A stretch of 54,001 nt of DNA from Elusimicrobiaceae bacterium (GTDB lineage Bacteria; Elusimicrobiota; Elusimicrobia; Elusimicrobiales; Elusimicrobiaceae), in assembly GCA_016281355.1 (NCBI GenBank), contig JAEEIL010000020.1, positions 1-54,001 on the forward strand. Reading direction: 5' to 3'. Both the position numbers and the translations under genes were made by a program. Shown piece after piece: positions 1 to 50,486 of the stretch (the first letter of the stretch is position 1; each line of letters begins with the position of its first letter). The notes beneath the pieces are model-generated. The model saw nothing but the letters and a program-made list of their open reading frames with translations, did no database searches and had not been told where the DNA came from.

Positions 1-258
1 AATACCGAATTTGTGCGAGTTATCAACGAAAACACCCTTAAAATGCGCGTCTACGAACGCGGCAACGGAGAAACTTACGCCTGCGGTTCGGGGGCGTGCG
101 CGGCGGTAGTCGCGGCGACGGAGAAGGGACTTATAAAGAAAAACCGCGACGTAACGGTAAAAGTCAAAGGCGGGGACCTTACGGTAAACTATTCCGAAGA
201 CGGGATAACGCTTTCCGGCGACACGGTACTCGTGTACAAAGGCGAATTCGAATTTTAA
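1..258 (+). CDS. dapF: Diaminopimelate epimerase, C-terminal part
   Basis: This is the 3' end of dapF, cut by the window start; the reading frame is open from base 1. DapF converts LL- to meso-diaminopimelate for lysine and peptidoglycan synthesis in the cytoplasm. The fragment holds the family signature ERGNGET followed by ACGSGACA, whose first Cys is one of the two catalytic cysteines, then the usual C-terminal beta strands (GGDLTV...LSGDTVLVYKGEF). It is a host housekeeping gene with higher GC than the element to its right and is followed at once by a strong terminator. Family assignment is secure; only the N-terminal half is missing because of the window edge. Confidence 0.95.
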   Translation, partial: NTEFVRVINENTLKMRVYERGNGETYACGSGACAAVVAATEKGLIKKNRDVTVKVKGGDLTVNYSEDGITLSGDTVLVYKGEFEF

Positions 259-430: not shown

Positions 431-466
431 AAAGAAACAGACAACCAAAAGGTTGTCTGTTTCTTT
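431..466 (-). terminator. Terminator downstream of the leftmost tRNA-Gln 3' repeat
   Basis: A perfect 16-bp stem (AAAGAAACAGACAACC with its complement) and a 4-base loop abut the attachment repeat. Read on the minus strand, it lies directly after the CCA end of the tRNA repeat. It is probably the original chromosomal terminator of tRNA-Gln, now about 50 kb from the tRNA. Confidence 0.75.
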
Positions 467-491
467 GGCAGGGGTAGCTGGATTCGAACCA
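466..491. repeat. Attachment-site repeat 1 (left end of element A)
   Basis: 26 bases identical to the 3' end of tRNA-Gln (50644-50669), including the complement of the encoded CCA and the T-arm. It is followed by CAAAAGCAA, which also follows repeat 2 at 34132, so the two elements have related ends. Confidence 0.9.
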
Positions 492-1042: not shown

Positions 1043-1402
1043 ATGGCAACTGAATTTGGAAAGATTTTAAGAATAATCCGAATAAATTCTGGGGATACGG
1101 CAAAGACAATGGCGGATAAACTCGGTATATCCGTTCCGTATCTTAATGCTATCGAAAACGGAAGGCGGGATATTCCGTCGGATCTAACGGATAAAGTTAT
1201 AAATGTATATGCTTTATCTGAAAAAGACCAAAAGAATATTAAAGAAGCGGTAGTGACTTCAAAAGACAAAGTAAAGATAGATCTAACGGAACTCGCAGAG
1301 AAAAAGAGAAGGGTTATTCTTGCTCTTGCGCAAGACGAAATCGACGACGACGTTATGGAAGAAATTTGCAAAATGGTAAATGCAAAAAAAGGAGACAAAT
1401 AA
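1043..1402 (+). CDS. XRE-family HTH transcriptional regulator
   Basis: A 119-residue cytoplasmic DNA-binding protein. Residues about 1-60 form a Cro/C1-type helix-turn-helix (EFGKILRIIRINSGDTAKTMADKLGISVPYLNAIENGRR); the C-terminal half is a charged helix probably used for dimerisation. I take the ATG at 1043 because GGAGGTG sits 5 bases upstream; a longer reading from 1004 starts inside the promoter -10 region and is unlikely. The stop codon overlaps the next start (TAATG), so it is translationally coupled to the SPFH gene. The TACA-N4-TGTA pair at its promoter suggests autoregulation of the whole operon. Confidence 0.85.
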   Translation: MATEFGKILRIIRINSGDTAKTMADKLGISVPYLNAIENGRRDIPSDLTDKVINVYALSEKDQKNIKEAVVTSKDKVKIDLTELAEKKRRVILALAQDEIDDDVMEEICKMVNAKKGDK

Positions 1403-2898
1403 TGAAAGGTATTGTTTTAGAGCCGACGATTGCGGACGAAAAGGTGTTAGTTCAGTTTACTGCCGAAATATCGGTAGATAAACACGTATCGGTTAAAGCC
1501 CCGAAAGGATATCAGGCGGTCGTTATCGTTGACGAAAAAGCGATAGCGAGAGTCTCGTCTGGTGCGGAGAAGAAAATAATAGAATATGGCAAACAATGGC
1601 TTAATAAAAAAGCCCGTGTTGCGTTTGTTCGTAGTCAAGTTTCTTCCGATATGGCTTGGGGTTTCGGTAATATAAGGGTAAATAACGAAAGATTGCAAGA
1701 AGCCTACACGGTCGGAGCAAACGGCAAATATTCCGTAGAAATTACCGAAGTTGGCAAACTCTTAAACGGTTTCAGCGGCGAAGAAAACGTTACAACCGAT
1801 ATAATAAGAGAAAAAACGATAGCGACCGTAAAGAATATAGGGACTGCGGTTTTGGCGAAATATTTTGCAAATACCGATACGTCCATATTCGAGATTTCGG
1901 CGCATACGGCAGAAATTCGTAAAGAAATGATAGCCGCGTTAAAAAACGAAACCGCGTTTAATACGCTTGGGCTTAAACTTCACGATCTTACAGTCGATGG
2001 TGTACATATACCGGAAGAAGACCTTGAACTTATTAAAAGTCGTATAAACGGCGGTTCGTCTAAGGCGGCGCAAGTACATAATGATAATTCGGATTTCGAC
2101 GATGCAATATTAAAAATAACCGAAAAACTGAATTCTTTGGAAGAAAGCGTTAAAAAATACGGTGAAACGTTAGGCGATAATAAAAGCGACTTTACGGCTA
2201 TTAAACAAGAAATAGAAGAAGCGCTTGCAGAAAGGTTTGCAGAAAATTCCGCAGACTTTCAAGAAAAAATAGAAAGCGTGATTACCGAAAAGGTCAGCGA
2301 AGAAGCGGCGCTTTGGAAAGATACGCTGCTTGCGGGACTTGACGAAAGATTACAAAATGCGGAAAAGAGCGAAAGACCGCAGGTTTATAATACTGAATAT
2401 ACGGCGGAATCGCTTATAACCAACGCACAAAAGGAAACGGATTATTTGCTTGCCGCGTCGATGATCTATTCTTGCGTGGAAGATAGGCTTATAAACGTAT
2501 TTCACTTGCAACACCAAAACAAAAAATTTGTAATACCTTATACGGAATATCTTGAACTTGCCGATACCGCAACGATAAACGGCGAATACATATTAAAGCG
2601 GAAAACTGTAAACGGATACGAACCTTTGCAATCGAACGTGGAAGAAACTTATAATGATGGAACGCCAAAACTTGTGGAAATGTTCCCTATTGTTAGGTTC
2701 TTAAAAGCGGGATTATCTCCTATTGATGCGAAACGTGCGGAAAAAATAAGCGTGGTAATAAATAAAATCCGTCATCCGTCGCCTGAAAATAAAAATTTTT
2801 TGCAAAGGTTTTTTGCAAGAGAAAAGCAGAAGAAGAAAGAGTTTTTGATTAACGCGTTAGAGTTTTTGAAAGAAAAAGAATTATATATTGAAAAGTGA
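1402..2898 (+). CDS. SPFH-domain protein (YdjI-like) with coiled coil
   Basis: 498 residues. The N-terminal 210 or so resemble the SPFH/stomatin-prohibitin domain found in Bacillus YdjI and 'virion core protein'-like proteins: a beta-rich start (KGYQAVVIVDEKAIARVSSG), the GFGNIRVNNERLQEAYTVG strand pair, then ITEVGKLL and a long helical region. Residues about 235-320 are coiled coil, and the C-terminal 150 are unassigned. SPFH proteins form membrane-associated ring or cage assemblies. In Bacillus, ydjI lies with pspA in a membrane-stress operon, and here too ESCRT-III/PspA-like genes follow. The start is set by GGAGACAAATA before ATG 1402; the frame extends upstream but overlaps the XRE gene. 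No membrane helix is visible, so anchoring is probably indirect. Confidence 0.7.
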   Translation: MKGIVLEPTIADEKVLVQFTAEISVDKHVSVKAPKGYQAVVIVDEKAIARVSSGAEKKIIEYGKQWLNKKARVAFVRSQVSSDMAWGFGNIRVNNERLQEAYTVGANGKYSVEITEVGKLLNGFSGEENVTTDIIREKTIATVKNIGTAVLAKYFANTDTSIFEISAHTAEIRKEMIAALKNETAFNTLGLKLHDLTVDGVHIPEEDLELIKSRINGGSSKAAQVHNDNSDFDDAILKITEKLNSLEESVKKYGETLGDNKSDFTAIKQEIEEALAERFAENSADFQEKIESVITEKVSEEAALWKDTLLAGLDERLQNAEKSERPQVYNTEYTAESLITNAQKETDYLLAASMIYSCVEDRLINVFHLQHQNKKFVIPYTEYLELADTATINGEYILKRKTVNGYEPLQSNVEETYNDGTPKLVEMFPIVRFLKAGLSPIDAKRAEKISVVINKIRHPSPENKNFLQRFFAREKQKKKEFLINALEFLKEKELYIEK

Positions 2899-2909
2899 GG
2901 ATAAAAAAG

Positions 2910-3926
2910 ATGAGTAAAAAATATAAACCGTCGGTAAAGGCAAATAATGAATTAAAGGAAGAAGCAGTAAAAGAGTTAAAGGCTATAATCTACAAACTTG
3001 AAAAAGGCAAGTTTGACGATAGCCTTGATAAAGAAACCGTTGAAAACATAATCAAGGATATAAAATCCGCAACGGAAGGGCTTGAATATTCGATAGGCAC
3101 GGGCGACGAAAACGTGTACGCCATTGCGGAAGATGCAAAAAAGCAGATAAAGGCTTTCAAAAAACAGACCGAGCAAGAACTTACGGGAAGAATTGAAAGT
3201 GCGGCTGACGAACTTGTCTATACTTTGACGCTTTGGAAAGACGTGACGGATGGTAACGCTGTTTTGGAAACGGAAGAAGACGTTAAAAAAGCCAAAGTAT
3301 CAAGAAGCAGAAAGAAACTTGATAACAGGTTAAATGAACTCGACGAAATAAAAGAAAGTTTTTCCGTAAATGCAAAACGCCTTGATAAAGATATTCAAGC
3401 GGAGGAGAAAGACCTTGCCGAACTTGAAGAACAGATAATTAAAGAAGATAACGAGCGTAAAATAAACGAAATTTATCGTAAGATAAAAGCGGTAAAGAGC
3501 AAGATCGATATGCTTTCGGTCCGCAAAAGCAATTATTCCGCTTGTTATAATCTTCTGGATATGATATATGCAAACGCAAAAGAGATATTAAACGCCACCG
3601 ATTTTGCGGCGGAAGAAATAGCGAAAGCCAAAGTCCTTTTGAATATCGGAAAGTTAAAGCAGGTCGTAAGCGAGCCTGATAAAGCGATAGCCATATTAAA
3701 ACGTATGGATAAAGACGTAAAGGAAATAGCGGCAAAGACTGCAACTATCGACGAAAAGGTATTTGATTTCGATAAAGGTACGGCGACTGTTAACGAAGAC
3801 GCACTTAAATATAAAGAAGAACTTATGAGAAAGAAACGCGAAAAAGAAGGTTTAAGCGAGAGTATAGAAGAAAACGTTTCGCAGGAAGTTAAAAAAGAAT
3901 CTAAAACCGTAAAGGAGAATAACTAA
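2910..3926 (+). CDS. Coiled-coil protein, ESCRT-III/PspA-like candidate
   Basis: 338 residues, almost entirely helical and highly charged, without a signal peptide or membrane segment. Long heptad stretches run through about 140-215 (KKLDNRLNELDEIKE..., AELEEQIIKEDNERKINEIY). The acidic or mixed C-terminal tail (about 300-338) looks disordered. No catalytic motif is present. The helical-hairpin content, and its position between an SPFH gene and a second small helical protein with Vps4-like ATPases nearby, suggest a membrane-polymer subunit of ESCRT-III or PspA type; the primary sequence alone does not prove it. ATG 2910 is preferred (GTGAGG 9 bases upstream) over a GTG at 2895. It ends 1 base before the next gene. 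Confidence 0.55.
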   Translation: MSKKYKPSVKANNELKEEAVKELKAIIYKLEKGKFDDSLDKETVENIIKDIKSATEGLEYSIGTGDENVYAIAEDAKKQIKAFKKQTEQELTGRIESAADELVYTLTLWKDVTDGNAVLETEEDVKKAKVSRSRKKLDNRLNELDEIKESFSVNAKRLDKDIQAEEKDLAELEEQIIKEDNERKINEIYRKIKAVKSKIDMLSVRKSNYSACYNLLDMIYANAKEILNATDFAAEEIAKAKVLLNIGKLKQVVSEPDKAIAILKRMDKDVKEIAAKTATIDEKVFDFDKGTATVNEDALKYKEELMRKKREKEGLSESIEENVSQEVKKESKTVKENN

Positions 3927-3927: not shown

Positions 3928-4512
3928 ATGGCGTTTTTTAAAACAAAACAGGAAAAACAAATAATGGCGCAAATGGAGCGCGACGAACAAATGCAGGTCT
4001 TTAACGACCAAATCAACGAACTTAAAACCAAACGCGAAGAATATGCAAAAATCGCCGCGGAAGCAGAGATTAACGGCGATACGGGAACTTACGACGTTGC
4101 AATAAACGCGCTTATGGAACTTAACGACGTTATTTCAAGTTTAATGCAGACGAAAGCCAACTTCGATATAATCAACGTTTCTAATTCTATTGCTGTTAAT
4201 ATGGCTATGGCTATGAACGCGCTTGATAAAATGGCAGGCAATAAAGCCAAAATGCCGAACATAAGAAAGATACAGAAAGCCAACGTCAAGATAAGCAAAT
4301 ATATGCGTAACATCAATATTTCGCAAAAGGCTATGTCTGGCGTTATGAAAACGTCTAACCCCGCAAATAGGGCAAGAAGCGACGCAGAGATTGCGGCAGT
4401 TCGTCCGATGATAGACGCGGCGAGAGCGAAACTCGGCGGTGTTTCAATGCCACAGGCTTCCGGTATAGATATTTCGGCTGAAATAGAAGCAGAGAAGAAT
4501 AGAATTATATAA
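3928..4512 (+). CDS. Small helical protein, Snf7/ESCRT-III-like candidate
   Basis: 194 residues, all-helical, with no signal peptide. A basic N-terminus (MAFFKTKQEKQIMAQMERDEQ) leads into helices rich in small and aliphatic residues; the central part (DVISSLMQTKANFDIINVSNSIAVNMAMAMNALDKMAG) resembles the alpha1-alpha3 pattern of Snf7-type proteins, where short hydrophobic repeats alternate with Gln, Asn and Lys. An ISAEIEAEKNRI tail could be the ATPase-recognition helix (MIM-like). Good ribosome binding site (AAAGGAGAATAACTAAA). With two Vps4-like ATPases in the same array, an ESCRT-III role is the most economical reading, but profile or structure comparison is required. Confidence 0.5.
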   Translation: MAFFKTKQEKQIMAQMERDEQMQVFNDQINELKTKREEYAKIAAEAEINGDTGTYDVAINALMELNDVISSLMQTKANFDIINVSNSIAVNMAMAMNALDKMAGNKAKMPNIRKIQKANVKISKYMRNINISQKAMSGVMKTSNPANRARSDAEIAAVRPMIDAARAKLGGVSMPQASGIDISAEIEAEKNRII

Positions 4513-4548: not shown

Positions 4549-6714
4549 ATGGAACTTAAAAGCCTTAAATGTCCCGTATGCGGCGCAAGTGTTGACGTAA
4601 ATAAAATAGATTTTACCCGTAAAATAGCAAAATGTTCGTCTTGCGACGAAACTTTTGTAATCGAGCAAGCGGAAAACTTTGCAAAAGTTGAAGTCGATAA
4701 ATCGAAAGATATAAAGAACTATCGCACTAATTTATCCATTGCGGTTGAAAAGAACAACGTAAAAGAAATAAAGCGGCTTGCGGAAAATATTTTGGATATT
4801 CTGCCCGACGATTACGAAGGCGGATATTTTTACGCATACGCACTATCTAAACTCGGCGACAGTAGTTATCTTTACGATTTTTATAAAGATACCGAAAAGG
4901 TTTATACCGAAGAGTCGGCGACAAGGGTTGCCGAACACGTTATAGCAAACGGCGACCTTCGCGATAATAAGTTTATTGAAGAATATCTGCGACATTTGCA
5001 ATATTCAGCTGGAAAGTATATTTCATATTATAAAGAGATTTTTTTAGTTAAATTTCAAACGGAAGAACTTTATGATGATATTGCCCGTGATGTTTTTATT
5101 TGTCATAGAAGTATTGACTGTAAGGTAGCAGAAAAAATTGTAAAAACTCTTGAAGATGACGGCAATAAATGCTGGATTTCTTCAAGGAACTTGCGTCCGA
5201 ATGATAACGAAAATTATTGGGATAATATTAAAAGAGCTATAAAGTCCTGTCGTGTTTTTTTAGTTGTATCAAGTTGGGATGCTATGTTATCCACAGACGT
5301 TAAAAAAGAAATGGCGTACGCCAAAGATCTTAATAAACGCCGTTTGGAAGTAAAAATCGACGATAGCGAACATACGGCATTTTTTAAAGATTTTTTTGAT
5401 GGGTGTAAATGGATAAAAGGTGAAAATTATAATGACATAAAAAAACGTGTCGCAGAACTTATATTTCCAGAATTAAGCGATTGTACCGAAAGAATAGAAA
5501 ATAAAGTTATATTGTCGAGTAATGAGCAAGTTAAATATTCCGAAGGACTTGAAATTGTAGATGGCGTTTTGAGGGGATTGGGAACTTGTACTGCTAAAGA
5601 GATAACCATTCCTAACGGAGTGTCGGAGATTGGTGATGGTGCTTTTGTAAATATTGAATATTATCATGATGCCCCCCCAGAGATTATCGGTAGTGATATT
5701 ACAAGTGTTTATATCCCAGATACGGTTAAGGCGATAGGTAGTATGGCATTTTGTAATTGTCATAATTTAACAAAAATAGATATTCCTAACAGTGTAATAC
5801 AGTTTGGTGAGGCACAAGATTTATGGGAGGACGGAGACAAATTCGGAGTATTTTATGGTTGCGCGAATTTAGAAGAGATTCAAATAGGTTCTGGCATAAA
5901 AAAAATACCGAGCGGTACATTTGAGGGATGTGTAAATTTAAAAAAAATTACTTATTATGAAGGTACACATATTGAATATTATGCTAATTTCAAACATGAT
6001 TTTGATATAGATTTTGATAACCCCTATTATAATTATGACAATGATTATCCAAAGATAAAAATTGTAAATTTTATTGGCAGTATAGAGGGATGGCTTAAAG
6101 AACCGCTTATTAAACTTAATTCAGACTATGATGAGCCTTTTCAACTATTATTGAATGGAGAAATTGTAAAGGAATTATTAATATCAACCGATATACCTTG
6201 TGGTGCGTTTGAAAATTTTAGACAGTTAGAAAAAGTTGTTGTTGGCAAAGATGTAAATAAGATTGAGCCTTTTGCATTTTTTACTTGTGATAACCTAAGG
6301 CGCGTAGAATTTAGCGATACAGATAATAGTGTGTGGCAATTATTTAAAGACAATAATGATAACAAATCACTCTTTGATACGATAAATACAAACGAATTTA
6401 CTATCGAACAGATGACCGATTATTTTAAAAAGCACTATGATTGTACTTGGATAAAAATTTATAAAAATAAAAAAACGAGATATAAGCTTTGTCCTATATG
6501 TAAAACAAAGTTTATAAAGGAGAATGAAGAAACTTGTTGGGCTTGCAAAAATATACACCAACGTCCCAAAGATAGTAATATACCTGTTATTAGTTCACAT
6601 AATCGAGACAAATATGACATTGACGAAGCAGAACAAGATTATTGGTTTGATGTTGGAGATGACAATGAAAAAACTGATAACGGATATCTTGACGACATAC
6701 AAGATGACGAATAA
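4549..6714 (+). CDS. Zinc ribbon-TIR-LRR protein with C-terminal zinc ribbon
   Basis: 721 residues, cytoplasmic. The N-terminal zinc ribbon uses C8/C11 and C29/C32 (CPVC...CSSC). Residues about 45-170 are helical, TPR-like. A TIR domain spans about 179-310 (DVFICHRSIDCKVAEKI..., WISSRNL, FLVVSSWD), with E254 in KKEMAYA as the candidate catalytic glutamate of NADase-type TIRs. BspA-type leucine-rich repeats follow (about 335-620: ITIPNGVSEIGDGAF, VYIPDTVKAIGSMAF, GCVNLKKI), and a second CxxC pair near 645-665 (CPIC...CWAC) closes the protein. TIR domains cleave NAD+ or make cyclic-ADP-ribose-type signals in bacterial immunity; the LRRs probably bind a partner. The same zinc ribbon type recurs at the N-termini of the 2044-residue protein and the protease downstream. 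Confidence 0.8.
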   Translation: MELKSLKCPVCGASVDVNKIDFTRKIAKCSSCDETFVIEQAENFAKVEVDKSKDIKNYRTNLSIAVEKNNVKEIKRLAENILDILPDDYEGGYFYAYALSKLGDSSYLYDFYKDTEKVYTEESATRVAEHVIANGDLRDNKFIEEYLRHLQYSAGKYISYYKEIFLVKFQTEELYDDIARDVFICHRSIDCKVAEKIVKTLEDDGNKCWISSRNLRPNDNENYWDNIKRAIKSCRVFLVVSSWDAMLSTDVKKEMAYAKDLNKRRLEVKIDDSEHTAFFKDFFDGCKWIKGENYNDIKKRVAELIFPELSDCTERIENKVILSSNEQVKYSEGLEIVDGVLRGLGTCTAKEITIPNGVSEIGDGAFVNIEYYHDAPPEIIGSDITSVYIPDTVKAIGSMAFCNCHNLTKIDIPNSVIQFGEAQDLWEDGDKFGVFYGCANLEEIQIGSGIKKIPSGTFEGCVNLKKITYYEGTHIEYYANFKHDFDIDFDNPYYNYDNDYPKIKIVNFIGSIEGWLKEPLIKLNSDYDEPFQLLLNGEIVKELLISTDIPCGAFENFRQLEKVVVGKDVNKIEPFAFFTCDNLRRVEFSDTDNSVWQLFKDNNDNKSLFDTINTNEFTIEQMTDYFKKHYDCTWIKIYKNKKTRYKLCPICKTKFIKENEETCWACKNIHQRPKDSNIPVISSHNRDKYDIDEAEQDYWFDVGDDNEKTDNGYLDDIQDDE

Positions 6715-7977: not shown

Positions 7978-10900
7978 ATGGCACAAAATATATGTAATAT
8001 TTGCGGAGCGAATTATGAATATAAAAACGGTAAATGGGTGTGTCCCGCTTGCGGAGCGTATAAGCCCGAAGAACTTTCTAACGAAGAAGTTACGCTTTTA
8101 TATAATGCGTCGCAAAAAATAAGGCTCGCGCTGTTTGACGACGCGGAAGAACAGTATAAAGACATTGTATCGAAATACCCTGATAACCCTGACGGTTATT
8201 GGGGACTTGTGCTTGCAAAATACGGTATCAAATACGAACAGGATTACGACGGTAAAATGATCCCGTCCTGTTACGCCGCAAGTTATGAAAGTGTTTTAAC
8301 CGATAAGAATTATCTTAAAGCGATAGAACTCGCAGATAAAGATAATCGCAAGTATTACGAGGAACAAGCAAACAAGATAGAGAAAATCCGCAGAGAGTGG
8401 ATAAATAAGGCAAGCAAAGAAGAGCCTTACGATATTTTTATTTCATATAAAGACACCGAGAAAGAGAACGGCACGGAAAGAACCAAAGACAGTTACGACG
8501 CATTAGAACTTTACACAATGCTGTCTAAACTTGGTTATAGAGTGTTTTACAGCAGAGAATCCTTGAAGGATAAAACGGGCGAAAAATATGAGCCGTACAT
8601 ATTCAATGCGCTTAATACCGCACACATAATGATAGTTTACGGTAGCAAACCCGAATACATAGAATCTACTTGGATTAAAAACGAGTGGATGAGATTTTAT
8701 AAGCGTATCAAACTCGGCAAAAAACAGCCTAATGCGTTGCTCGTAATAAACAACGGTTTTAATCCTGCCGAACTTCCCTCTCCACTTTCCAAAATGCAAA
8801 ATCTTGATAGAAACCGTATTGATTTTTCGAGAGAGTTGGAAAGTTATTGCAAGCGCGTTATTAAAGCGGCAACCACCGTTCTTCCTAAAATCGAGCGTGT
8901 GGAAGTAAAAGCAAAACAAGGCAAAGTCGGTAAGATTGTTAAAATAGAGGCAGTAGAATTAAACAGCAGAACCGTACAAAAAACCGAAATAGTAAGAGAA
9001 GAAGTCGAAAAGCGTGAGATAGGAAACTACACCGTTTCTAAACTTACCGCTAACGCACAAAACGAGCTTAAAATAGCCGAAATGCAATTATCTACCGCTA
9101 ACTTTGACGAAGCGGGAAAGCGATTTAACACGTTCTTATTAAAAAATCCGAAAAACGGACGTGCGCTTACCGGCAAACTTCTTGCCGAAAACAAAAGCAA
9201 GGATTTGGACGGGTTTTCGAGTGTAGGTGTTCAAAATTTTGCCGAATGGAAACTGTTGGAACAAGTTTTATTATTCTCCGAAAAAAGCGTTTCAGGGAAA
9301 ATATTAAAATCGCTGTGCGACGAGATTTTACGCTCATTTAACACGGGCGATTATGGTCGTGCAAGAGACATATATTCGCAGGTGTCGGCTTACGAAGATA
9401 GCGCAGTTACCGAAATGCGTAAATCCGTTTGTGATTTAGCAAAGGGACTTATAGGTAAAAACGACGATACGGCAAAATACTTTATAGACGGGTATCTTTT
9501 ATACGAACAAGACGAAGACAAGTTTTTGTCTCAAATTAGAAACATCGTTGGCATTTCTATTGAAAAAGGCGATTTTAACTTTGCGAAAAAGTATTCCGAA
9601 GACTGGCTGAAATATGAAAACTACGACTTATCGGCAAATTATTCCGCTCTTAAAATCAAATATAAAGTAAAAACGCTAACAGAGTTATTTACCAAAACAG
9701 AAAGCAATAACGCCTATTCAGAAATAGACGAGATTTTACATTGTTTAAATGAAGAATCGGCGGCGGCATGCTTTAAGGATATTTGCGACAGAGTAAATAC
9801 TCTTTTAAGTGCCGATAATTTCGCAAAGCAGGTATATGCCTACATAGACAAGTTCTTCCGATACAACATTAACGGTAGATCAGAAAAGATAAAACAGTTT
9901 TTAACTTTTATTGCGAATAAACCGTCAAAAGAATTCGCTTCCGTATTCGATCTCTTACTTTCTCTTTCAGACTTTAATACGGAAGAATACAGCCTTTACA
10001 CTTTAAAATTTGCTGACAATTCATTAAAGAACGGTGATTTTGACCTTGCCGATAAGTATTACGACAAAGTAAACGAACTGCACGAAACGGCTCTTTCTTG
10101 GGAAGGGAAATTGAAATGCCGTTTAAAAGTCAAAAACGATATAGAATACTCGGCTAATATACAAAACTTAACCGACTTTAAGATTATAGAGAATATTTTG
10201 TCTTTGTCGGAAAACGACGGCAAGCGTTACGAGTTTTTAAGCCGTATTATAGGATACGTTTATTCTGCACTAAAAACGTCTAAAACGGACACGGCAAAAC
10301 TTGTTGCCGTTTTTGAGAATTTGCTTTCTTACGTTCCGAAAGACTTTGACGATAAAATTATCGAGTGGCTGTTTAAGTTTGCACGGTTCTTAAAAAATAA
10401 CGACGAGTTTGATTTAGCAGAAAAACTGTATGCAATAATTATAAATTACGATGCGGAAAACCACGTTGCATATTGGGAAATGTTGCAAGCAAAACTTCGT
10501 TGTAAGGATGAAAACTCGGTTATAAAGCAATATAATCTTATTTCAGACTTCCAAGAGTTCCAAAATGCGCTTGTTGTATCGGCAAAAATAAATTCGGATG
10601 CGTTAAAGCATTATACAAATATCCAACACGAACAAATTAAGTGGATTGAAGAACAAGAAGAATTACAAGTTAAAAATGAGTTAAAAAAACGCAGGGCAAA
10701 AAAACGCAATATTATTATAGCAATAGGTGTAATTGTTGGAATTATAATTGCTTGCACCTGTGTCTTTTGGGGCGTTCAAAGTTATAACCGCAACGAAAGT
10801 AAATTAAGATATAATTCAGTTGATGGGGGACTTTCTGTTCGTGCAGGCAAATATTATACTGCGGAAGAAACGCTTGTTATCCCCTATAAAGTCGATAATA

Positions 10901-13900
10901 AGTTCGTAATTGAAATAAAGGCGTATGCGTTTAAAAACCATACAGAGATAAAGAAAGTAATTTTGCCTATGGCGATAACAAAAATAGGCGACGGAGCTTT
11001 TGAAGGTTGCGTAAATTTAGAAAGCGTTGAATTTAAGGATATATTGGAAGCGAGTGCGAACACACAGGCAAATGCTAATGGAAATAACGGCATAAGTCTG
11101 TTTTCGCCACAAACATTTAACACCGTGAGTTTTGCAACTGTCAACACTACTGATAGTATTAAACTTTCCGTAATCGGAGCAAAAGCGTTTAAGGGGTGTG
11201 AGAAATTACAGACCTTTGAATTAAATTACGGTCTTAAAACAATCGGAGATGAGGCATTTGCAGGGACGGGATTAAAAGAAGTTACTATTCCTAATACAGT
11301 TGCATTTGTTGGCAAAGCCGCTTTTGAAAACTGTAAAGATTTAGTCAATATCGAAGTTGGCGATAAAGATCAAATCTTGCAGACTTGGGATACGGATTGG
11401 AATAAAGGGAATGAGACGAAAGTAAAATATTCGTTCCGTGTATTTTTTAACTATAATGGTGCAGACGTAGAAACAATAATAAACTCCCAACAATTCGTTG
11501 TTTTTGGCAAAACGTATTCTTTTCCTGTGCCTACAAAAACAGGCTATTCATTTGTTGGTTGGTATTTTGGCGACGTAAAATTAACAGACAATAACGGTTT
11601 ATCGCTTAATGTTTGGCATTATCAGGACGGCGGAACTGTAAAAGCTGTATGGGGCAACACTATAGAGTATGCTATCTCTTATAATTTTGGTGGTGGAACA
11701 GTTAAAGAAGCACAAATTCCCAGTGACGCGCTTTTATATAATAATCATTATTACTATATTTATAATACAAATAAAACATGGGAAGAAGCAAAATCGTATT
11801 GTGAAAGTTTAGGCGGGCATTTAGCAACTATTACAAGTAGCGCAGAAAACAATTTCATTGCTACTTATTTAGGTTCAAATTATTATTACATAGGCGGATA
11901 TAAAGATGGTTCAAAGTGGAAATGGGTTACAGGAGAAGAATGGAATTATACTAACTGGAATTCTGGTGAACCGAGTAACCAAAACGGTATTGAAGATAAA
12001 TTAGAATTTTGGACAAATAAAAAATGGAACGATGTTTCAAATGGCGGAACAAATAGACGATTCATCTGTGAATGGGAAACGAGTGATCAAATTATAACAA
12101 CCTATACGATAGAAACAGAAACTTTTGCGTTGCCTGAACTTGCAAAAGAAGGGTATAGTTTTATTGGCTGGACATGGGCGAATAGTGATGTTCCGCAGAA
12201 AAATGTTGTTATTATGAAAGGTTCTTCTGGTAATAAAAAATATATTGCAAATTGGCAAGCAAATGAAAACATTTTGCATTTCGACGCCAACGGCGGTAGC
12301 GGTACGATGGTTGATAAAACGGTTAAGACTGACGCCACAACAACACTACCGACTAACACTTTTACGCGAAGCGGTTATGTTTTCAAGGGCTGGGCAGTAA
12401 GCGAAAACGGAACAAAAGTTTACAATAATGGTGCTTCTTATAAAATGGGGAATAACCCGGAGTACACGCTTTACGCTGTATGGGAAATTGAAATTTATGA
12501 TATAACCTATAATCTTGATGGGGGCATTGTAAGTGGGAATCCATATGGTTATACAATTTATTCAGCAACATTTATTTTAAATAATCCGACAAAAGACGGC
12601 TATACATTTTTAGGGTGGAGCGGTACTGATATTGTTGATAAATCATTTAATGTTACAATTGAACAAGGCTCAGTCGGCAATAGAAATTATTATGCTAATT
12701 TCGGTAAAAATGATAAAAATATTGTTTTGTTAAATATTACCGATAATGGGAATGAGTCCGTAACAGTAAAAGGTTGTGGAAATTCTTATTGTAGGCTACC
12801 TGCTAATACTTTTACTAAGGATGATTATGAATTTAAGGGGTGGAGCTCATCTCAATTCGGGGAAGTCGAATATTACGATAGAGATTTATTTTTCGTCGGA
12901 GAAAACGAAAATTATAACTTATTTGCCGTGTGGGAAGACCGAACAGATTGGATAGCAATATCAACTGCTGAAGAATTTATCAACATAAGAAATGATACAA
13001 CAAAAAAATATTATTTAACAAAAGATATTGACTTAAATGGATATAATTGGGAAACGATAGCGAATTTTAGTGGGATTTTAGATGGTAATGGTAAGGCTGT
13101 TTACAATCTTAATATTGTTAGTCCAAAAGTAATAACAAAATTTGGTCAGGATGGTTATGGTTATCCCGTTTATGAGTTGTCGTATTATTTAGATTTGTTT
13201 TATCAAGGTAATGTTAAAAATTTATCAATAGAATATAATGGCTATTCTTCGAGTTCTTCATATCCTAGAACTGAAAAAAAATATACCACAACATATAAAT
13301 ATTATCTTTATGTTGGTATTGTGTCTGGCGAAAATTGTTACATAATAAATAGGTGTGATGAATTAATAGACAACACGAGTGCAATTATCATTGATAAATC
13401 AATAATGTGTTCAGATGATAATTCTTATGGTAATTATATGTTATACATATATAACAATGATTTCCGTGTTCAAAAAATCAATTCGCACGAAATAGTTGAA
13501 CTAAAACAATGTATGTTTGAAAAACTCGGCTATACGTTTATCGGTTGGACATTGTCTGACGGTGGGGTGGTAAAATATCATGCGGGAGACGAATTTTATA
13601 TCCCAATAGGTAAATCTAATATAACACTTTATCCCGTTTGGCAAGCAAACACCAATGAAGTGATATTTAATGCAAACGGCGGTAACGGAACAATGGCAAG
13701 TCAACAAATGCAAACCGACGTAACCACAGACCTTAATGCAAACACATTTACTAAAATGGGCTATCATTTTATAGGTTGGGCAACTTCCGCTAACGGTACA
13801 GTGGTTTATGAAAACGGCGCGTCTTACACAATGGGGACAAACGCGTCTTACACGCTGTATGCCGTTTGGGAGCAAAACACTAACGAGATCATCTTTAACG

Positions 13901-14112
13901 CCACCAAAGGTAGTGGAACAATGGCAAATCAACAGGCGTTGACCGATACCGTTGTCACGCTTAATCAATGCACTTTCACCGCACCGACAGGGTATTATTT
14001 CGCAGGCTGGTCAGAAGATCCTAACGGGAACGCAGATTATACTGACTGTTCGTCCTTTTCTGTAGGAACAAGCAGTACCTATACGTTATATGCGATTTGG
14101 AAAATGATTTGA
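7978..14112 (+). CDS. Giant membrane-spanning TIR receptor-like protein (LRR, C-type lectin, InlB repeats)
   Basis: 2044 residues. In order: zinc ribbon (C6/C9, C22/C25); helical repeat; TIR domain about 150-300 (DIFISYKDTEKENG..., candidate catalytic E236 in KNEWMRF); TPR-like helices to about 900; a basic stretch KKRRAKKR (903-910) and one membrane helix (about 912-935); then BspA-type LRRs (about 940-1130), InlB/Listeria-Bacteroides repeats, a C-type lectin-like domain (about 1253-1367: SYCESLGGHLATI, WNYTNWNSGEP, RRFICEWE), more InlB repeats, a GLUG-like unit (about 1656-1845: IDLNGYNWE, FSGILDGNGK) and three final InlB repeats ending in YAIWKMI. The positive-inside rule places TIR in the cytoplasm and lectin/LRR outside. 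No sortase motif or second membrane helix is seen. The layout mirrors animal Toll-like receptors, inverted in chain order; that parallel is architectural only. Confidence 0.85.
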   Translation: MAQNICNICGANYEYKNGKWVCPACGAYKPEELSNEEVTLLYNASQKIRLALFDDAEEQYKDIVSKYPDNPDGYWGLVLAKYGIKYEQDYDGKMIPSCYAASYESVLTDKNYLKAIELADKDNRKYYEEQANKIEKIRREWINKASKEEPYDIFISYKDTEKENGTERTKDSYDALELYTMLSKLGYRVFYSRESLKDKTGEKYEPYIFNALNTAHIMIVYGSKPEYIESTWIKNEWMRFYKRIKLGKKQPNALLVINNGFNPAELPSPLSKMQNLDRNRIDFSRELESYCKRVIKAATTVLPKIERVEVKAKQGKVGKIVKIEAVELNSRTVQKTEIVREEVEKREIGNYTVSKLTANAQNELKIAEMQLSTANFDEAGKRFNTFLLKNPKNGRALTGKLLAENKSKDLDGFSSVGVQNFAEWKLLEQVLLFSEKSVSGKILKSLCDEILRSFNTGDYGRARDIYSQVSAYEDSAVTEMRKSVCDLAKGLIGKNDDTAKYFIDGYLLYEQDEDKFLSQIRNIVGISIEKGDFNFAKKYSEDWLKYENYDLSANYSALKIKYKVKTLTELFTKTESNNAYSEIDEILHCLNEESAAACFKDICDRVNTLLSADNFAKQVYAYIDKFFRYNINGRSEKIKQFLTFIANKPSKEFASVFDLLLSLSDFNTEEYSLYTLKFADNSLKNGDFDLADKYYDKVNELHETALSWEGKLKCRLKVKNDIEYSANIQNLTDFKIIENILSLSENDGKRYEFLSRIIGYVYSALKTSKTDTAKLVAVFENLLSYVPKDFDDKIIEWLFKFARFLKNNDEFDLAEKLYAIIINYDAENHVAYWEMLQAKLRCKDENSVIKQYNLISDFQEFQNALVVSAKINSDALKHYTNIQHEQIKWIEEQEELQVKNELKKRRAKKRNIIIAIGVIVGIIIACTCVFWGVQSYNRNESKLRYNSVDGGLSVRAGKYYTAEETLVIPYKVDNKFVIEIKAYAFKNHTEIKKVILPMAITKIGDGAFEGCVNLESVEFKDILEASANTQANANGNNGISLFSPQTFNTVSFATVNTTDSIKLSVIGAKAFKGCEKLQTFELNYGLKTIGDEAFAGTGLKEVTIPNTVAFVGKAAFENCKDLVNIEVGDKDQILQTWDTDWNKGNETKVKYSFRVFFNYNGADVETIINSQQFVVFGKTYSFPVPTKTGYSFVGWYFGDVKLTDNNGLSLNVWHYQDGGTVKAVWGNTIEYAISYNFGGGTVKEAQIPSDALLYNNHYYYIYNTNKTWEEAKSYCESLGGHLATITSSAENNFIATYLGSNYYYIGGYKDGSKWKWVTGEEWNYTNWNSGEPSNQNGIEDKLEFWTNKKWNDVSNGGTNRRFICEWETSDQIITTYTIETETFALPELAKEGYSFIGWTWANSDVPQKNVVIMKGSSGNKKYIANWQANENILHFDANGGSGTMVDKTVKTDATTTLPTNTFTRSGYVFKGWAVSENGTKVYNNGASYKMGNNPEYTLYAVWEIEIYDITYNLDGGIVSGNPYGYTIYSATFILNNPTKDGYTFLGWSGTDIVDKSFNVTIEQGSVGNRNYYANFGKNDKNIVLLNITDNGNESVTVKGCGNSYCRLPANTFTKDDYEFKGWSSSQFGEVEYYDRDLFFVGENENYNLFAVWEDRTDWIAISTAEEFINIRNDTTKKYYLTKDIDLNGYNWETIANFSGILDGNGKAVYNLNIVSPKVITKFGQDGYGYPVYELSYYLDLFYQGNVKNLSIEYNGYSSSSSYPRTEKKYTTTYKYYLYVGIVSGENCYIINRCDELIDNTSAIIIDKSIMCSDDNSYGNYMLYIYNNDFRVQKINSHEIVELKQCMFEKLGYTFIGWTLSDGGVVKYHAGDEFYIPIGKSNITLYPVWQANTNEVIFNANGGNGTMASQQMQTDVTTDLNANTFTKMGYHFIGWATSANGTVVYENGASYTMGTNASYTLYAVWEQNTNEIIFNATKGSGTMANQQALTDTVVTLNQCTFTAPTGYYFAGWSEDPNGNADYTDCSSFSVGTSSTYTLYAIWKMI

Positions 14113-14144
14113 AACAAACAATGAACAGCAAAGGAGAATTTAAT

Positions 14145-14738
14145 ATGAAACAAGGGGTAATACATTTATCTTCAAATTATACAAGAGAAGATTGGAAAAA
14201 ATTGCATTTAACAAGACAAAGTGATTTTAACACTTGGAAGAAGGCTATTAAAATTTTTGACGATAGAATAATGGGATGGTATTTTAATTCAATAGATTTA
14301 TTATCAGATAATGTTTTCAAAAATGGTTTTTCAATTATGGCTATATGTTGTCTTTTAATTGATACTTTTAAACAATTTATGGATGGGGAATTAACGTCTA
14401 ATCCTAATTATAAAAATAGGGGAAATGAATCTAAATATGAGTTTTTTCTGCAACATGAATTAAATGATGTTTTTGACAATTATTCTGCCAGAGTGTTTTA
14501 CAAGTCAATTAGATGTGGCATTTTGCACTCTGCTCAAACTAAAAATGATGCGATTCTTGTTGATATAGGAGATAGAGTGGTGCAAAATGTAAATGGGATG
14601 TTACAGGTGGCGGTTGTACCATTCGTTCAACGATTAAAAGAATATTATACATTATATAAAAACAGGCTTTTAGATGAGAAAGAGCTTGTTTTAAGAAATA
14701 GTTTTATTAAAAAAATGAATGATATTGTGAATAAATAA
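14145..14738 (+). CDS. HEPN-like protein
   Basis: 197 residues, helical. The segment YKSIRCGILHSAQTK contains RX4H (R-C-G-I-L-H), the active-site signature of HEPN-type RNases, within the helix-rich context expected for that fold. I chose ATG 14145 (AAGGAGAATTTAAT upstream) over an earlier in-frame ATG at 14097 that overlaps the giant gene. Base composition is visibly more AT-rich than the neighbouring AAA genes, as is the next gene, so the two look like a cargo cassette placed inside the operon. HEPN proteins are commonly toxins or RNases in conflict systems; the assignment rests on the motif and should be checked by a profile search. Confidence 0.5.
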   Translation: MKQGVIHLSSNYTREDWKKLHLTRQSDFNTWKKAIKIFDDRIMGWYFNSIDLLSDNVFKNGFSIMAICCLLIDTFKQFMDGELTSNPNYKNRGNESKYEFFLQHELNDVFDNYSARVFYKSIRCGILHSAQTKNDAILVDIGDRVVQNVNGMLQVAVVPFVQRLKEYYTLYKNRLLDEKELVLRNSFIKKMNDIVNK

Positions 14739-14760
14739 GAAAATAATTTTAGGATTACAA

Positions 14761-15402
14761 ATGAATTTGCAAATTAATAATAAAAATTTTTTTGAAAATA
14801 TTGCAACTTACATATTAAAAAAGTATTTTAAAAATAAATATTCTGGACTTAAAAGAATGCCTGTTGGACAGGATAAACCTGATTTACAAAGCATTATATC
14901 TAATGTCGGGGTAGAGGTGACATTAATATGTAAGCAGGAATATATTGAGGCTTCGACCATTTTTTCTCAATTAAATGAAATATGTGATAATAAAAAAACA
15001 AAGAAAATTTCCAGAATACAACAATTAGTAGATTATGGGAATGGGTTTATTATTGAAAATTATAGTTTAATTGATATTGAAGGAATACTGGTAGATTCAT
15101 ATAACAAGAAAAGTCAAAAATTAAATAATGGTTATAAAATTTTTGAACGAAACGAATTGTTTTTTATTAACGAATTACAAAATATTGATCAGGATATGTG
15201 CCAGACATTTTTAAAAATAATCAAAGACAATAAAACTAACAGTTTGATGTTTGATACAATTTATATTTTAAATTGTTTTAATAAAAAACTGTTCATTATT
15301 AATTTAAGCGAAAAGGATAAAGGAATCGAATCACTTATAATAAATGATTTGGAAAAAATAGCCAAAAAAGCGAAATATGAATTCGTAAGGAATAACCTAT
15401 GA
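14761..15402 (+). CDS. PD-(D/E)XK nuclease-like protein
   Basis: 213 residues. The N-terminal helix is followed by KPDLQSIISNVGVEVT, which reads as the PD...ExT variant of the PD-(D/E)XK core (D of PDL, E of GVEVT, with Thr in place of the usual Lys). The remainder alternates helices and strands (SLMFDTIYILNCFNKKLFIINLS). The gene is AT-rich like the HEPN-like gene before it, and its stop overlaps the start of the next AAA gene (ATGA), so it is translated as part of the operon. It may be a nuclease effector or an inactive relative. Confidence 0.45.
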   Translation: MNLQINNKNFFENIATYILKKYFKNKYSGLKRMPVGQDKPDLQSIISNVGVEVTLICKQEYIEASTIFSQLNEICDNKKTKKISRIQQLVDYGNGFIIENYSLIDIEGILVDSYNKKSQKLNNGYKIFERNELFFINELQNIDQDMCQTFLKIIKDNKTNSLMFDTIYILNCFNKKLFIINLSEKDKGIESLIINDLEKIAKKAKYEFVRNNL

Positions 15403-16532
15403 ATAATCAACCTAAAATTGAAGCGTTTAAGAGCTTCTACCAACAAGGAAAAGATTTATATAATGCGGGCGATATATCTTCCGCAAGAGATGCGCTTATA
15501 AAGGCGGCGGAACTTGCCAACGATATTTCCGTAAATGCAAACTCCTACGACGTGCGCATGGAATATCATAAAACGGCGGTTAAAATACTTGATTTTGTCA
15601 AAAAATCTTGTGTAAAAACGCCACCGCAAGCCGTTACACCAAATAGTCAGAACGGCGAGCAGGAAGAAAAGCCGCAAGCTGTAAAAGCAGAGAAAAAAAG
15701 CGGTATTACTTTTGCCGATGTTGCGGGGCTTGAAGACGTAAAAGACCAGATACGCTACAAGGTTTTAGAGCCACTTAAGAATCCCGAGCTTGCCGAAATG
15801 TATAAAATCGAGCCGGGCGCGAAGATTCTTCTTTACGGTCCTCCCGGAACGGGCAAGACCTTTATTGCCCGTGCAATCGCAGGCGAAGTGGACGCAGAGT
15901 TTTACGTCGTGAACTGTCAAGACCTTATTTCAAAATATATGGGCGATAGTAGTAAAAAGTTGGACGAACTATTCGACGAGGCGCAGAAGAACGAGCGCGC
16001 TATCATCTTTTTTGACGAGTTCGATTCGGTAGCAAGTAAGCGTGGTGACGGTGGCGACGGCGTTGATGCGGAAATGGCGCGTTTTGTAGCGACTTTTTTA
16101 ACCAAGGTTGACGGCTTTAAGAAGAGTGAAACAAACAAAATGCTTTTGCTTATTGCGGCAACAAACCGTCCGTGGGCGTTAGACAGCGCAATGCTCCGTG
16201 GCGGGCGTTTCGATACGCATATTTACGTCGGAGTTCCCGACCAAACGGCACGTGAGTTTTTGGTTAACAAGGTGTTAAAAGGCTTACCTATGGACGAAGA
16301 CGTTGATTTATCTAAACTTGCGTGGGCTTTGGAAGGTTACGGCGGCGGCGATATTACGGCAATTTGCGGGAAAATTAAACTTTCGGCGTATATGCGTTCA
16401 TTGAAGGTTGGGACACCGCAGAATATTACTCGTGAAGATTGCAACGGTGTTTTAGTATCTTCGCATAATATGATAACAGCGGAAGATATCGAGAAATTTG
16501 AAAAATTTCGCCAAAGCGGTTCGATAGACTAA
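15399..16532 (+). CDS. Vps4-like AAA ATPase with MIT-like N-terminus (second of two)
   Basis: 377 residues. Residues 1-70 form a three-helix MIT-like domain (AFKSFYQQGKDLYNAGDISS..., ARDALIKAAELAND), very like the Vps4 microtubule-interacting-and-transport domain that binds ESCRT-III tails. After a linker comes the AAA module: Walker A GPPGTGKT (147-154), the pore-loop motif SKYMGDS (compare KWMGES in Vps4), Walker B FFDEFDS (D206, E207), sensor-1 ATNRPWALD, and GGRFD. There is one ATPase domain and no membrane segment. It differs clearly from the 406-residue paralogue in the pore loop and N-terminus, so the two may form a hetero-hexamer or serve different polymers. Confidence 0.75.
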   Translation: MNNQPKIEAFKSFYQQGKDLYNAGDISSARDALIKAAELANDISVNANSYDVRMEYHKTAVKILDFVKKSCVKTPPQAVTPNSQNGEQEEKPQAVKAEKKSGITFADVAGLEDVKDQIRYKVLEPLKNPELAEMYKIEPGAKILLYGPPGTGKTFIARAIAGEVDAEFYVVNCQDLISKYMGDSSKKLDELFDEAQKNERAIIFFDEFDSVASKRGDGGDGVDAEMARFVATFLTKVDGFKKSETNKMLLLIAATNRPWALDSAMLRGGRFDTHIYVGVPDQTAREFLVNKVLKGLPMDEDVDLSKLAWALEGYGGGDITAICGKIKLSAYMRSLKVGTPQNITREDCNGVLVSSHNMITAEDIEKFEKFRQSGSID

Positions 16533-21514: not shown

Positions 21515-21515
21515 C

Positions 21516-36221: not shown

Positions 36222-36228
36222 ACCTATT

Positions 36229-49283: not shown

Positions 49284-50486
49284 GTGAAAAATTATAAGAG
49301 AAAAACAAGAACTACCAAGGCAGACAACGAAACTTTACTATTAGAGCAAATAAAACATTTAAATACTTTAATAGAAAAGTTAGAGTCAAAGCCGTCAACA
49401 GACGGGAATGGGAAAAAGGGACTGAAAGTTAAAATCGGCAAATTACAATTTACAAAGAAGGAGATACAAGAAATGCCGAGATTAAAAGATTTCAGTATAA
49501 GACAAAAAGAAAACGGAGTGTATGAGATAAGATTTCGAAGATACGGGTATAACGAAAGTTTTTCGAGTAAAGATTTCAGCGTAGCAAAACAAAAGGCGTT
49601 TACGTGGCTTGCCACTTTCGAACACGAGATACAGGCAAACGAGAATTTTGTTATATTGAAAAGAAGCGAAAAGGGCGATTTTTACGAAAGCAATACAGTA
49701 ATGTTCAAAGTTTTTGCCCACAATTACTTATATAATGTTAAGAAGTCTATGGTTGTGCAATACACATTTGATAACATAATTAACATTTATAAAAATCACG
49801 TTGCAAAAATTTACGATAAATACCCCGTATCGAAAATCAAGCCTGAAATGATTCAGAAACACTTAAACGTATTATCGAAAGAGAAAGGGAGAACGTGCGA
49901 AACGGTAAGGTCGATATTAAACGGAATTTTTGAATACGCCGTAGCAAGCGGCGTGATAGACAGAAATCCGATGAAAGCCGTATTTATCAAAAAGCACGAA
50001 CGCACAACGGGAACTGCGCTTTCAAAGGACGAAGAACGGAACTTCGTTGAAAGTATAAAGGGAACGAAGCACGAAGCGATTTTTCTTAAAATGCTTTATT
50101 CGGGCGTAAGACCTTGCGAGATAAACGATATAAAGGAAGATTTGGAGCATAACACGATAACGATTAAAAACGGAAAGTTAAAGAGTTATCAAAAGAATTT
50201 ATTCAGAATAATACCTATATTTCCTTTGTATAAACAGGTGGCTGAATGTGATTGCGGAAAACTCAATCCTAGAAAATTGTCGTACGAGTTCAGAGAATAT
50301 TGTCCGAACCATCAGTTAAAGGATTTAAGGCATACTTTCACCACAAGGGCAAGAGAGTGCGGAATAGATAACGAACTCGTGGCGGTATGGACGGGACACT
50401 CGCTTGGAAACATAACGAGTAGCGTATATACCCATTTTTCGATAGAGTTTCAGCAAGAACAGGCAAAAAAATTAGTATATATCTAA
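49284..50486 (+). CDS. Tyrosine integrase of element B
   Basis: 400 residues from GTG 49284, or 337 from ATG 49473, which has a better-spaced AAGGAG (49458-49463) and yields the usual start MPRLKDFSIRQ. The upstream 63 codons (coiled KTRTTKADNETLLLEQIKHL...) may be a true extension. An N-terminal arm-binding domain (YEIRFRRYGYNESF), an SAM-like core-binding domain, and a catalytic domain with SGVRPCEI (Arg), LKDLRHTFTTRA (HxxR), WTGHS (His) and SVYTHFS (Tyr) are visible. It reads toward the tRNA and should integrate at the tRNA-Gln 3' end. Confidence 0.9.
   Translation: MKNYKRKTRTTKADNETLLLEQIKHLNTLIEKLESKPSTDGNGKKGLKVKIGKLQFTKKEIQEMPRLKDFSIRQKENGVYEIRFRRYGYNESFSSKDFSVAKQKAFTWLATFEHEIQANENFVILKRSEKGDFYESNTVMFKVFAHNYLYNVKKSMVVQYTFDNIINIYKNHVAKIYDKYPVSKIKPEMIQKHLNVLSKEKGRTCETVRSILNGIFEYAVASGVIDRNPMKAVFIKKHERTTGTALSKDEERNFVESIKGTKHEAIFLKMLYSGVRPCEINDIKEDLEHNTITIKNGKLKSYQKNLFRIIPIFPLYKQVAECDCGKLNPRKLSYEFREYCPNHQLKDLRHTFTTRARECGIDNELVAVWTGHSLGNITSSVYTHFSIEFQQEQAKKLVYI

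What the first reader, a model, noticed from the sequence alone, without database searches (positions are those of the whole stretch)
7978..14112. Bacterial protein with Toll-like-receptor-like layout: cytosolic TIR, one membrane helix, external LRR and C-type lectin
A single 2044-residue chain places a TIR domain before a KKRRAKKR stop-transfer flank and a membrane helix, and LRR, C-type lectin and InlB repeats after it. By the positive-inside rule the recognition domains face outward. Most bacterial TIR immune proteins are cytosolic, so a surface-exposed sensor joined to TIR would be a distinct mode, possibly detecting phage or neighbouring cells at the surface.
Basis: partly seen in the sequence, partly recalled or inferred. 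Interest (0 to 1): 0.92.

Follow-up and report, generated by a model that had tools for sequence, protein, structure and literature searches.

The report
Membrane TIR receptor in ESCRT-like operon
A gut bacterium carries, on a mobile gene island packed with defence genes, a protein built like a back-to-front Toll-like receptor, and it sits in an operon whose other proteins resemble the ESCRT membrane-remodelling machinery, which published surveys had placed only in archaea and eukaryotes.

Summary
ORF 7978-14112 (2044 aa) reads Zn ribbon - TIR (Glu236 present) - helical repeats - basic flank - one strong membrane helix (912-930) - BspA LRR - C-type lectin - InlB repeats. Four orthologues keep TIR, basic flank, single helix and LRR/InlB ectodomain; the lectin is found only here. 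An outward-facing ectodomain is well predicted, not proven. In other loci of the family the ectodomain is missing.

The larger finding is the operon. It encodes an SPFH protein, coiled-coil CC1, CC2, a second soluble TIR-LRR, two Vps4/Cdc48-class AAA ATPases and a Zn-ribbon trypsin. CC2's model matches ESCRT-III structures, and its profile aligns collinearly with CHMP3/Vps24; controls do not. Of 30 loci with a CC2 relative, 29 have a same-strand AAA gene in the fetched stretch, 25 within 200 bp and one fused to it; 19 have a TIR gene. [quoted passage not shown]

The window operon lies on a 50-kb, low-GC, tRNA-Gln-integrated island rich in defence genes. Best reading: a surface-sensing membrane TIR receptor within an ESCRT-like conflict or membrane-stress system. 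Ligand, catalysis and anti-phage function are untested. The contig is probably mis-binned.

The parts
466..491 (+). att repeat (26 bp), left end of the island
   Evidence: exact 26-bp direct repeat of the tRNA-Gln 3' end at 50644-50669
1043..1402 (+). XRE-type HTH regulator, first gene of the operon
   Evidence: sequence; orthologue at the same place in L004 (73% identity), L035, L037, L038
1402..2898 (+). SPFH/Band-7 protein
   Evidence: Pfam Band_7_1 36.8 bits, cut-off 24; SPFH gene in 26 of 30 related loci
2895..3926 (+). CC1, helical coiled-coil protein with conserved C-terminal motif DALKYKEELMRKKREKE
   Evidence: conserved in six close loci; fold model does not match ESCRT-III
3928..4512 (+). 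CC2, ESCRT-III-like protein (two long helices, then three shorter ones)
   Evidence: AlphaFold2 model; Foldseek top hits CHMP2A/CHMP3, CHMP1B/IST1, CdvB, Asgard ESCRT-IIIB, Vipp1; hhalign to CHMP3/Vps24
4549..6714 (+). second TIR protein: Zn ribbon - TIR - BspA LRR - Zn ribbon, no membrane helix
   Evidence: TIR_2 50.5 bits, LRR_5 92.6 bits; no hydrophobic segment
6724..7944 (+). AAA1, Vps4/CdvC-class AAA ATPase
   Evidence: NCBIfam best hit CdvC, 180.5 bits, below its 650 cut-off; 58.7% identical to the AAA half of the CC2-AAA fusion in L041
7978..14112 (+). the finding: membrane-spanning TIR protein, 2044 aa
7993..8052 (+). N-terminal zinc ribbon (aa 6-25)
   Evidence: sequence; conserved in orthologues
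8434..8832 (+). TIR domain (aa 153-285), Glu236 in STWIKNEW
10684..10767 (+). basic flank KKRRAKKR and membrane helix 912-930
11110..11358 (+). BspA-type LRR
11770..12072 (+). C-type lectin domain with GEPS, IED and WND motifs and one Cys pair
   Evidence: motif read from sequence
12115..14109 (+). InlB-type (List_Bact) repeats
14761..15402 (+). accessory ORF P0008 of unknown family, absent from the L004 operon (as is P0007, 14097-14738)
15399..16532 (+). AAA2, Vps4/Cdc48-class AAA ATPase with TPR/MIT-like N-terminal helices; Walker motifs intact
   Evidence: 80% identical in L004
16543..17331 (+). Zn ribbon - trypsin-like protease, no signal peptide or TM; H, D, S motifs (TNAHV, NDLALL, GCSGGP) intact
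   Evidence: Trypsin_2 88.8 bits; sequence; trypsin gene in 14 of 30 related loci
49284..50486 (+). tyrosine integrase at the right end of the island
   Evidence: Phage_int_M 41.4 bits
50644..50669 (+). att repeat, right end, inside tRNA-Gln (50644-50719, minus strand)

Best explanation
The protein is the membrane-anchored receptor subunit of an ESCRT-like conflict or membrane-stress system carried on a mobile defence island. Its C-terminal 1100 residues (LRR, lectin, InlB stalk) probably face the cell surface and its Zn ribbon, TIR and TPR-like region the cytosol. Inside, an SPFH scaffold, an ESCRT-III-like polymer-former (CC2) and Vps4-class ATPases act on the same patch of membrane, while a cytosolic Zn-ribbon trypsin and a second, soluble TIR-LRR serve as further effectors or sensors. 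Proposed cycle: ligand binding outside, or membrane damage during phage entry or contact with a neighbour, clusters the receptor; its TIR domains associate and either hydrolyse NAD+ or recruit the second TIR; the ESCRT-III/Vps4 module assembles to seal, pinch off or wall off the membrane, or to keep the receptors apart until needed. Shown: domain order, conserved helix and charge asymmetry, operon conservation, ESCRT-III-like profile and fold of CC2, AAA linkage and one fusion, island boundaries. Inferred: topology in the cell, catalysis, ligand, order of events, defence role.
For: Domains and helix. Orthologous operon regulator-SPFH-CC1-CC2-TIR/TM-AAA-trypsin in L004, with CC2 85% and AAA2 80% identical but the receptor only 41%, as expected of a fast-evolving ectodomain on a conserved core. 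CC2 fold: Foldseek leading matches are almost all ESCRT-III superfamily (CHMP, CdvB, Asgard, Vipp1, PspA, Snf7); CC1, treated the same way, gives none in its top 50. CC2 profile against CHMP3+Vps24: columns 1-144 on 1-152, P 2.4e-4; 0 of 300 heptad-preserving shuffles reach its score (32.5 vs mean 11.5, max 23.3), reversed profile 14.5, CC1 11.6, SPFH 12.8. With 38 sequences: 24.1 vs shuffle max 16.6, and no match to PspA. CC2-AAA fusion in L041. 29 of 30 loci have a same-strand AAA gene in the fetched stretch, 25 within 200 bp; SPFH in 26, TIR in 19, trypsin in 14. TIR proteins with predicted TM in 16 of 19 TIR loci. Island: 26-bp att repeats, integrase, GC 0.35 vs 0.47-0.51 flanks. Its other cargo is defence-type.
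Against: The CC2 model is of low confidence (pLDDT 65, pTM 0.38, two-row alignment) and no PDB hit passes E 0.001. Pfam does not call Snf7 on CC2 or its relatives, and a sequence profile search of the PDB finds no ESCRT-III. With 38 sequences the hhalign probability falls to 7% although its score stays above all shuffles. AAA2's N-terminus scores as TPR, with an archaeal Vps4 MIT domain only at E 2.7. AAA2 fits Cdc48 better than CdvC. The ectodomain is absent in some systems (L037, L038). No anti-phage, NADase or topology data exist.
Confidence: 0.5

Rival explanations
1. Envelope-stress and membrane-repair system (a Psp/Lia analogue), not immunity: the receptor senses wall or membrane state and the SPFH/ESCRT-III/AAA module repairs it; the TIR is a protein-interaction domain only.
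For: SPFH, ESCRT-III-type PspA and AAA associations in bacteria are linked to membrane stress (PMC11237479); L041 also encodes StiP and C-C_Bond_Lyase, which I associate from memory with tellurite-type stress operons; PspA itself is not found over cut-off in 101 sampled relatives of G341, leaving room for a substitute.
Against: Patchy presence, in the window on a mobile island among defence genes; fast-diverging ectodomains; recurrent TIR and trypsin partners; BrxL in L040.
Confidence: 0.27
2. Abortive-infection TIR system in which the LRR/lectin region is only a surface adhesin or stalk, and the trigger is intracellular (TPR-like region or the second TIR-LRR).
For: InlB, BspA and lectin modules are typical of Firmicutes adhesins (established knowledge); the soluble TIR-LRR P0002 suggests LRRs can work in the cytosol here; L037 keeps TIR and membrane helices with no ectodomain.
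Against: TIR, single helix and LRR/InlB ectodomain are kept together in five orthologues; an adhesin would not need a TIR on its cytosolic end.
Confidence: 0.15
3. The hydrophobic segment is not inserted and the whole protein is cytosolic.
For: No dedicated topology predictor was available; BspA LRRs occur in a protein of the same operon without a helix.
Against: Hydropathy 2.2-3.1 with 6-10 basic residues upstream in the four orthologues measured; independent TIR-KKSKKK-TM-InlB proteins in Christensenella UBA1782 (L005, L025).
Confidence: 0.05

Closest known systems
Animal Toll/Toll-like receptors
   Same: LRR ectodomain, one membrane helix, cytosolic TIR
   Different: Reverse order (TIR at N-terminus, type II topology), extra lectin, InlB and Zn-ribbon modules, BspA-type LRR, TIR keeps the catalytic glutamate; convergence of layout, no evidence of descent
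Archaeal and eukaryotic ESCRT-III/Vps4 systems (Cdv; Meth_adaptin ESCRT with SPFH and Zn ribbon, PMC10936438)
   Same: ESCRT-III-like protein next to Vps4/Cdc48-class AAA, up to three ESCRT-III-like paralogues per locus, SPFH and zinc-ribbon partners
   Different: Bacterial, mobile, coupled to TIR receptors and trypsin; MIT domain unproven; no winged-helix/ESCRT-II component recognised
PspA/Vipp1 phage-shock systems (PMC11237479)
   Same: ESCRT-III superfamily helix pattern, SPFH and AAA associations
   Different: CC2 aligns with CHMP3/Vps24 but not with PspA profiles and Pfam does not call PspA_IM30; no TIR/LRR/lectin receptor described there
DGR/ternary and STAND conflict systems with C-type-lectin-fold sensors, TIR and trypsin effectors (PMC10907252, PMC7159879)
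   Same: CLec-fold sensor, TIR and trypsin effector types in one locus
   Different: No reverse transcriptase, MoxR, vWA or STAND gene recognised in this operon; sensor and TIR are on one chain across a membrane
Thoeris and other bacterial TIR immune systems
   Same: TIR domain with the conserved glutamate
   Different: No ThsA recognised; ThsB/ThcB models not met for this protein; membrane-spanning

Membership tests
Toll-like receptor (layout only) | cytosolic TIR joined by one helix to extracellular LRRs | tested here: inconclusive
   layout met by sequence and charge asymmetry; topology not testable here; domain order is inverted
ESCRT system | ESCRT-III-fold protein | tested here: inconclusive
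   fold and profile tests positive against controls; low-confidence model, Pfam Snf7 not called
ESCRT system | Vps4-type AAA encoded with it | tested here: met
   29/30 loci with same-strand AAA, 25 within 200 bp, one fusion; Vps4_C above the Pfam cut-off in L040 and L041; AAA class is Vps4/Cdc48, exact subfamily not resolved
ESCRT system | MIT domain on the ATPase and MIM on ESCRT-III | tested here: inconclusive
   N-terminal helices score as TPR; archaeal Vps4 MIT (2w2u) only at E 2.7; MIM not tested
PspA/Vipp1 | PspA_IM30 domain | tested here: not met
   no Pfam hit; no profile match
TIR NADase immune proteins | catalytic glutamate in the TIR | tested here: met
   W..NEW glutamate invariant in 8 of 8; activity not testable
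Thoeris | ThsB/ThcB TIR with ThsA/ThcA partner | tested here: not met
   ThcB4 model 17.4 bits against cut-off 220; no PADLOC hit for this protein
IetAS | IetA ATPase with IetS protease | tested here: not met
   NCBIfam IteA 132.5 and 85.3 bits against cut-off 510; the protease here is trypsin-like, whereas IetS is subtilase-like (from memory)
DGR variable protein | lectin fold diversified by a nearby reverse transcriptase | tested here: not met
   no reverse transcriptase among the window ORFs scanned; template repeat not searched

The most novel reading that the evidence does not exclude
A widespread family of mobile bacterial ESCRT systems (ESCRT-III-like protein plus Vps4-class ATPase, with SPFH) is wired to membrane-spanning TIR receptors. 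Bacteria would then have an immune or membrane-surveillance machine joining a Toll-like receptor layout and ESCRT machinery, both associated with eukaryotes.
Probability: 0.5. Interest if true: 0.95.

Novelty: new variant of a known kind. Interest (0 to 1): 0.85.

Why it matters
Bacterial TIR immunity is known mainly from cytosolic sensors of infection; a receptor that reads the outside of the cell and carries a TIR inside would be a different mode. [quoted passage not shown] A bacterial family that joins ESCRT-III-like and Vps4-class proteins to TIR receptors would bear on the origin of ESCRT and raises a testable idea, that membrane remodelling is part of bacterial immunity.

Tried and rejected
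Order, class and phylum samples around the assigned genome found no copy of the system outside the window; this made sense once the contig proved probably mis-binned. Plasmid tblastn and a viral-contig scan with CC2 found nothing; phage hits with AAA2 were generic FtsH/AAA. The idea that CC1 is a second ESCRT-III was tested and rejected on present data. The MIT-domain idea stayed inconclusive. Simple Pfam or PDB sequence searches do not reveal CC2's nature, but CHMP3 itself reaches CHMP1B only at E 0.004 by the same kind of search, so that absence is weak evidence. CC2 as a plain PspA was rejected. No paper describing a TIR-TM-LRR bacterial receptor or a TIR-ESCRT operon was found in the open-licence library; subscription papers, including Burroughs and Aravind 2020, could not be read, so prior description cannot be excluded.
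Full report
OBSERVATION. The ORF at 7978-14112 is real and as described. Pfam places TIR_2 at 153-285, a BspA-type LRR at 1045-1127, a C-type lectin at 1265-1365 and eight InlB-type repeats; LRR and lectin are also matched by solved structures. The only strongly hydrophobic segment is 912-930 (mean hydropathy 3.08), preceded by NELKKRRAKKRN. Glu236 sits in STWIKNEW at the position of the catalytic glutamate of TIR NADases (motif from established knowledge; alignment). The lectin keeps most of the Ca2+ motif (GEPS, IED, WND) and one cysteine pair, read from the sequence.

THE LAYOUT RECURS. A Clostridia MAG (L004) carries an orthologue, 41% identical, with basic flank, helix at 907-925, LRR and InlB repeats but no lectin. 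L035/L045 (2728 aa), L036 (2233 aa) and L088 (1773 aa) also have TIR, one helix and an LRR/InlB ectodomain; L098 has a TIR-TM-LRR of another TIR type. In the four long members measured, 6-10 K/R lie in the 15 residues before the helix and 1-3 after. Shorter TIR-KKSKKK-TM-InlB proteins occur in Christensenella UBA1782 (L005, L025). In L037 and L038 the TIR protein ends in three helices with little or no ectodomain. Membrane anchoring is thus the commoner trait and the ectodomain the variable one. A cytosolic kinase-TM-PASTA layout is an accepted precedent for type II receptors in Gram-positive bacteria (established knowledge).

THE OPERON. Upstream and downstream on the same strand lie an XRE regulator (1043), an SPFH protein (1402-2898), CC1 (2895-3926), CC2 (3928-4512), a soluble Zn-TIR-LRR-Zn protein (4549-6714), AAA1 (6724-7944), the finding, two accessory ORFs, AAA2 (15399-16532) and a Zn-ribbon trypsin (16543-17331). 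In L004 the core is regulator, SPFH, CC1, CC2, receptor, AAA2, trypsin, with CC2 and AAA2 85% and 80% identical while SPFH, receptor and protease are 40-48%. The receptor, P0002 and the protease each begin with a zinc ribbon.

CC2 IS ESCRT-III-LIKE. With only two sequences AlphaFold2 gives helices 7-49, 52-102, 112-136, 145-170 and 183-193, the hairpin at pLDDT about 90, the rest low. Foldseek against the PDB returns CHMP2A-CHMP3, CHMP1B/IST1, CdvB, Asgard ESCRT-IIIB, Vipp1, PspA and Snf7 as almost all of its leading hits. CC1, another coiled-coil protein handled identically, gives none. Independently, a profile of ten CC2 relatives aligns end to end with CHMP3+Vps24 (P 2.4e-4); none of 300 heptad-preserving shuffles reaches its score. 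With 38 relatives the score still exceeds all 150 shuffles, while PspA gives nothing. The tests are consistent, but each is short of a conventional significance threshold for homology in a database search, so I call CC2 ESCRT-III-like, not proven ESCRT-III.

IT TRAVELS WITH A VPS4-CLASS ATPASE. The CC2 profile matches 31 of 297 genomes around G480, sometimes two or three paralogues per locus. Of 30 loci inspected, 29 have a same-strand AAA gene in the fetched stretch, 25 of them within 200 bp; the thirtieth (L088) was fetched without its downstream part. In L041 CC2 and an AAA1-type ATPase are one polypeptide of 532 residues. Vps4_C passes the Pfam cut-off in L040 and L041. Some loci carry a double-AAA, Cdc48-like version. 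SPFH is in 26, TIR in 19 and trypsin in 14 of 30. Makarova et al. [quoted passage not shown] Ravi et al. 2024 (PMC11237479) report bacterial VPS4-like ATPases without snf7, and PspA next to AAA or Band-7 proteins.

CONTEXT. The window operon lies in a 50-kb insertion at tRNA-Gln, flanked by 26-bp repeats with an integrase at the right end; GC is 0.35 against 0.47-0.51 in the flanks. The rest of the island encodes GmrSD-type nucleases, a Cas4-like DUF2779 protein, Fic, a type IIG restriction-methylation enzyme with a PLD/SNF2 helicase, and a third TIR protein. A defence role is inferred from this company, not shown. The contig is probably mis-binned: its DapF tail is at most 45% identical to the assigned genus, and the assembly has another DapF, but it is up to 65% identical to relatives of the L004 genome. 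This does not affect the operon, which recurs in other genomes.

MECHANISM. I favour a surface-facing receptor whose clustering brings TIR domains together at an SPFH/ESCRT-III membrane site that the AAA ATPases remodel, with the protease and second TIR as effectors. A membrane-repair role without immunity is the main rival. Ligand, catalysis and sequence of events are untested.

VERDICT. Observation confirmed; interpretation partly supported and enlarged. If the ESCRT assignment holds, the system is new in kind; on present evidence I rate it a new variant of TIR-based conflict systems with a 0.5 chance of the stronger claim.

Noticed in passing
window 1-258 and whole contig: Contig C27 is probably mis-binned: its DapF tail matches relatives of G341 (up to 65%) far better than the assigned genus (38-45%), and the assembly has a second DapF on C39.
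   Followed up: partly
window 34132-34157: A third exact copy of the 26-bp att core inside the island suggests two elements in tandem, 466-34157 (with the TIR/ESCRT operon) and 34132-50669 (with the integrase).
   Followed up: no
window 45284-46850: A third TIR protein (ThsB-type PADLOC match 96.7 bits, candidate PDC-S66 153 bits) next to a DUF4365/PDC-M02A protein: possible separate defence pair.
   Followed up: no
window 20249-23387: Two tandem GmrSD-family genes, the first with DUF7834.
   Followed up: no
window 37025-43775: PLD/SNF2 helicase plus type IIG-like methylase pair resembling DISARM or Hma-type helicases and type IIG restriction enzymes.
   Followed up: no
window 14097-15402: Two ORFs of unknown family (P0007, P0008) between receptor and AAA2, absent in L004; P0008 has a D..D..EVT pattern reminiscent of PD-(D/E)XK nucleases.
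   Followed up: no
L041:6772-8370 and 10222-13361: CC2-AAA fusion in a locus with StiP-PELOTA and C-C_Bond_Lyase genes, suggesting a link between these ESCRT-like systems and tellurite-type stress operons.
   Followed up: partly
L096:2299-6006: A TIR protein of an ESCRT-like locus ends in a ribosomal L7/L12 C-terminal domain after three membrane helices.
   Followed up: no
L039:2833-5949: A Zn-ribbon, single-helix, Ig-like ectodomain protein without a recognisable TIR in a CC2/AAA/trypsin locus: the receptor slot may exist without TIR.
   Followed up: no
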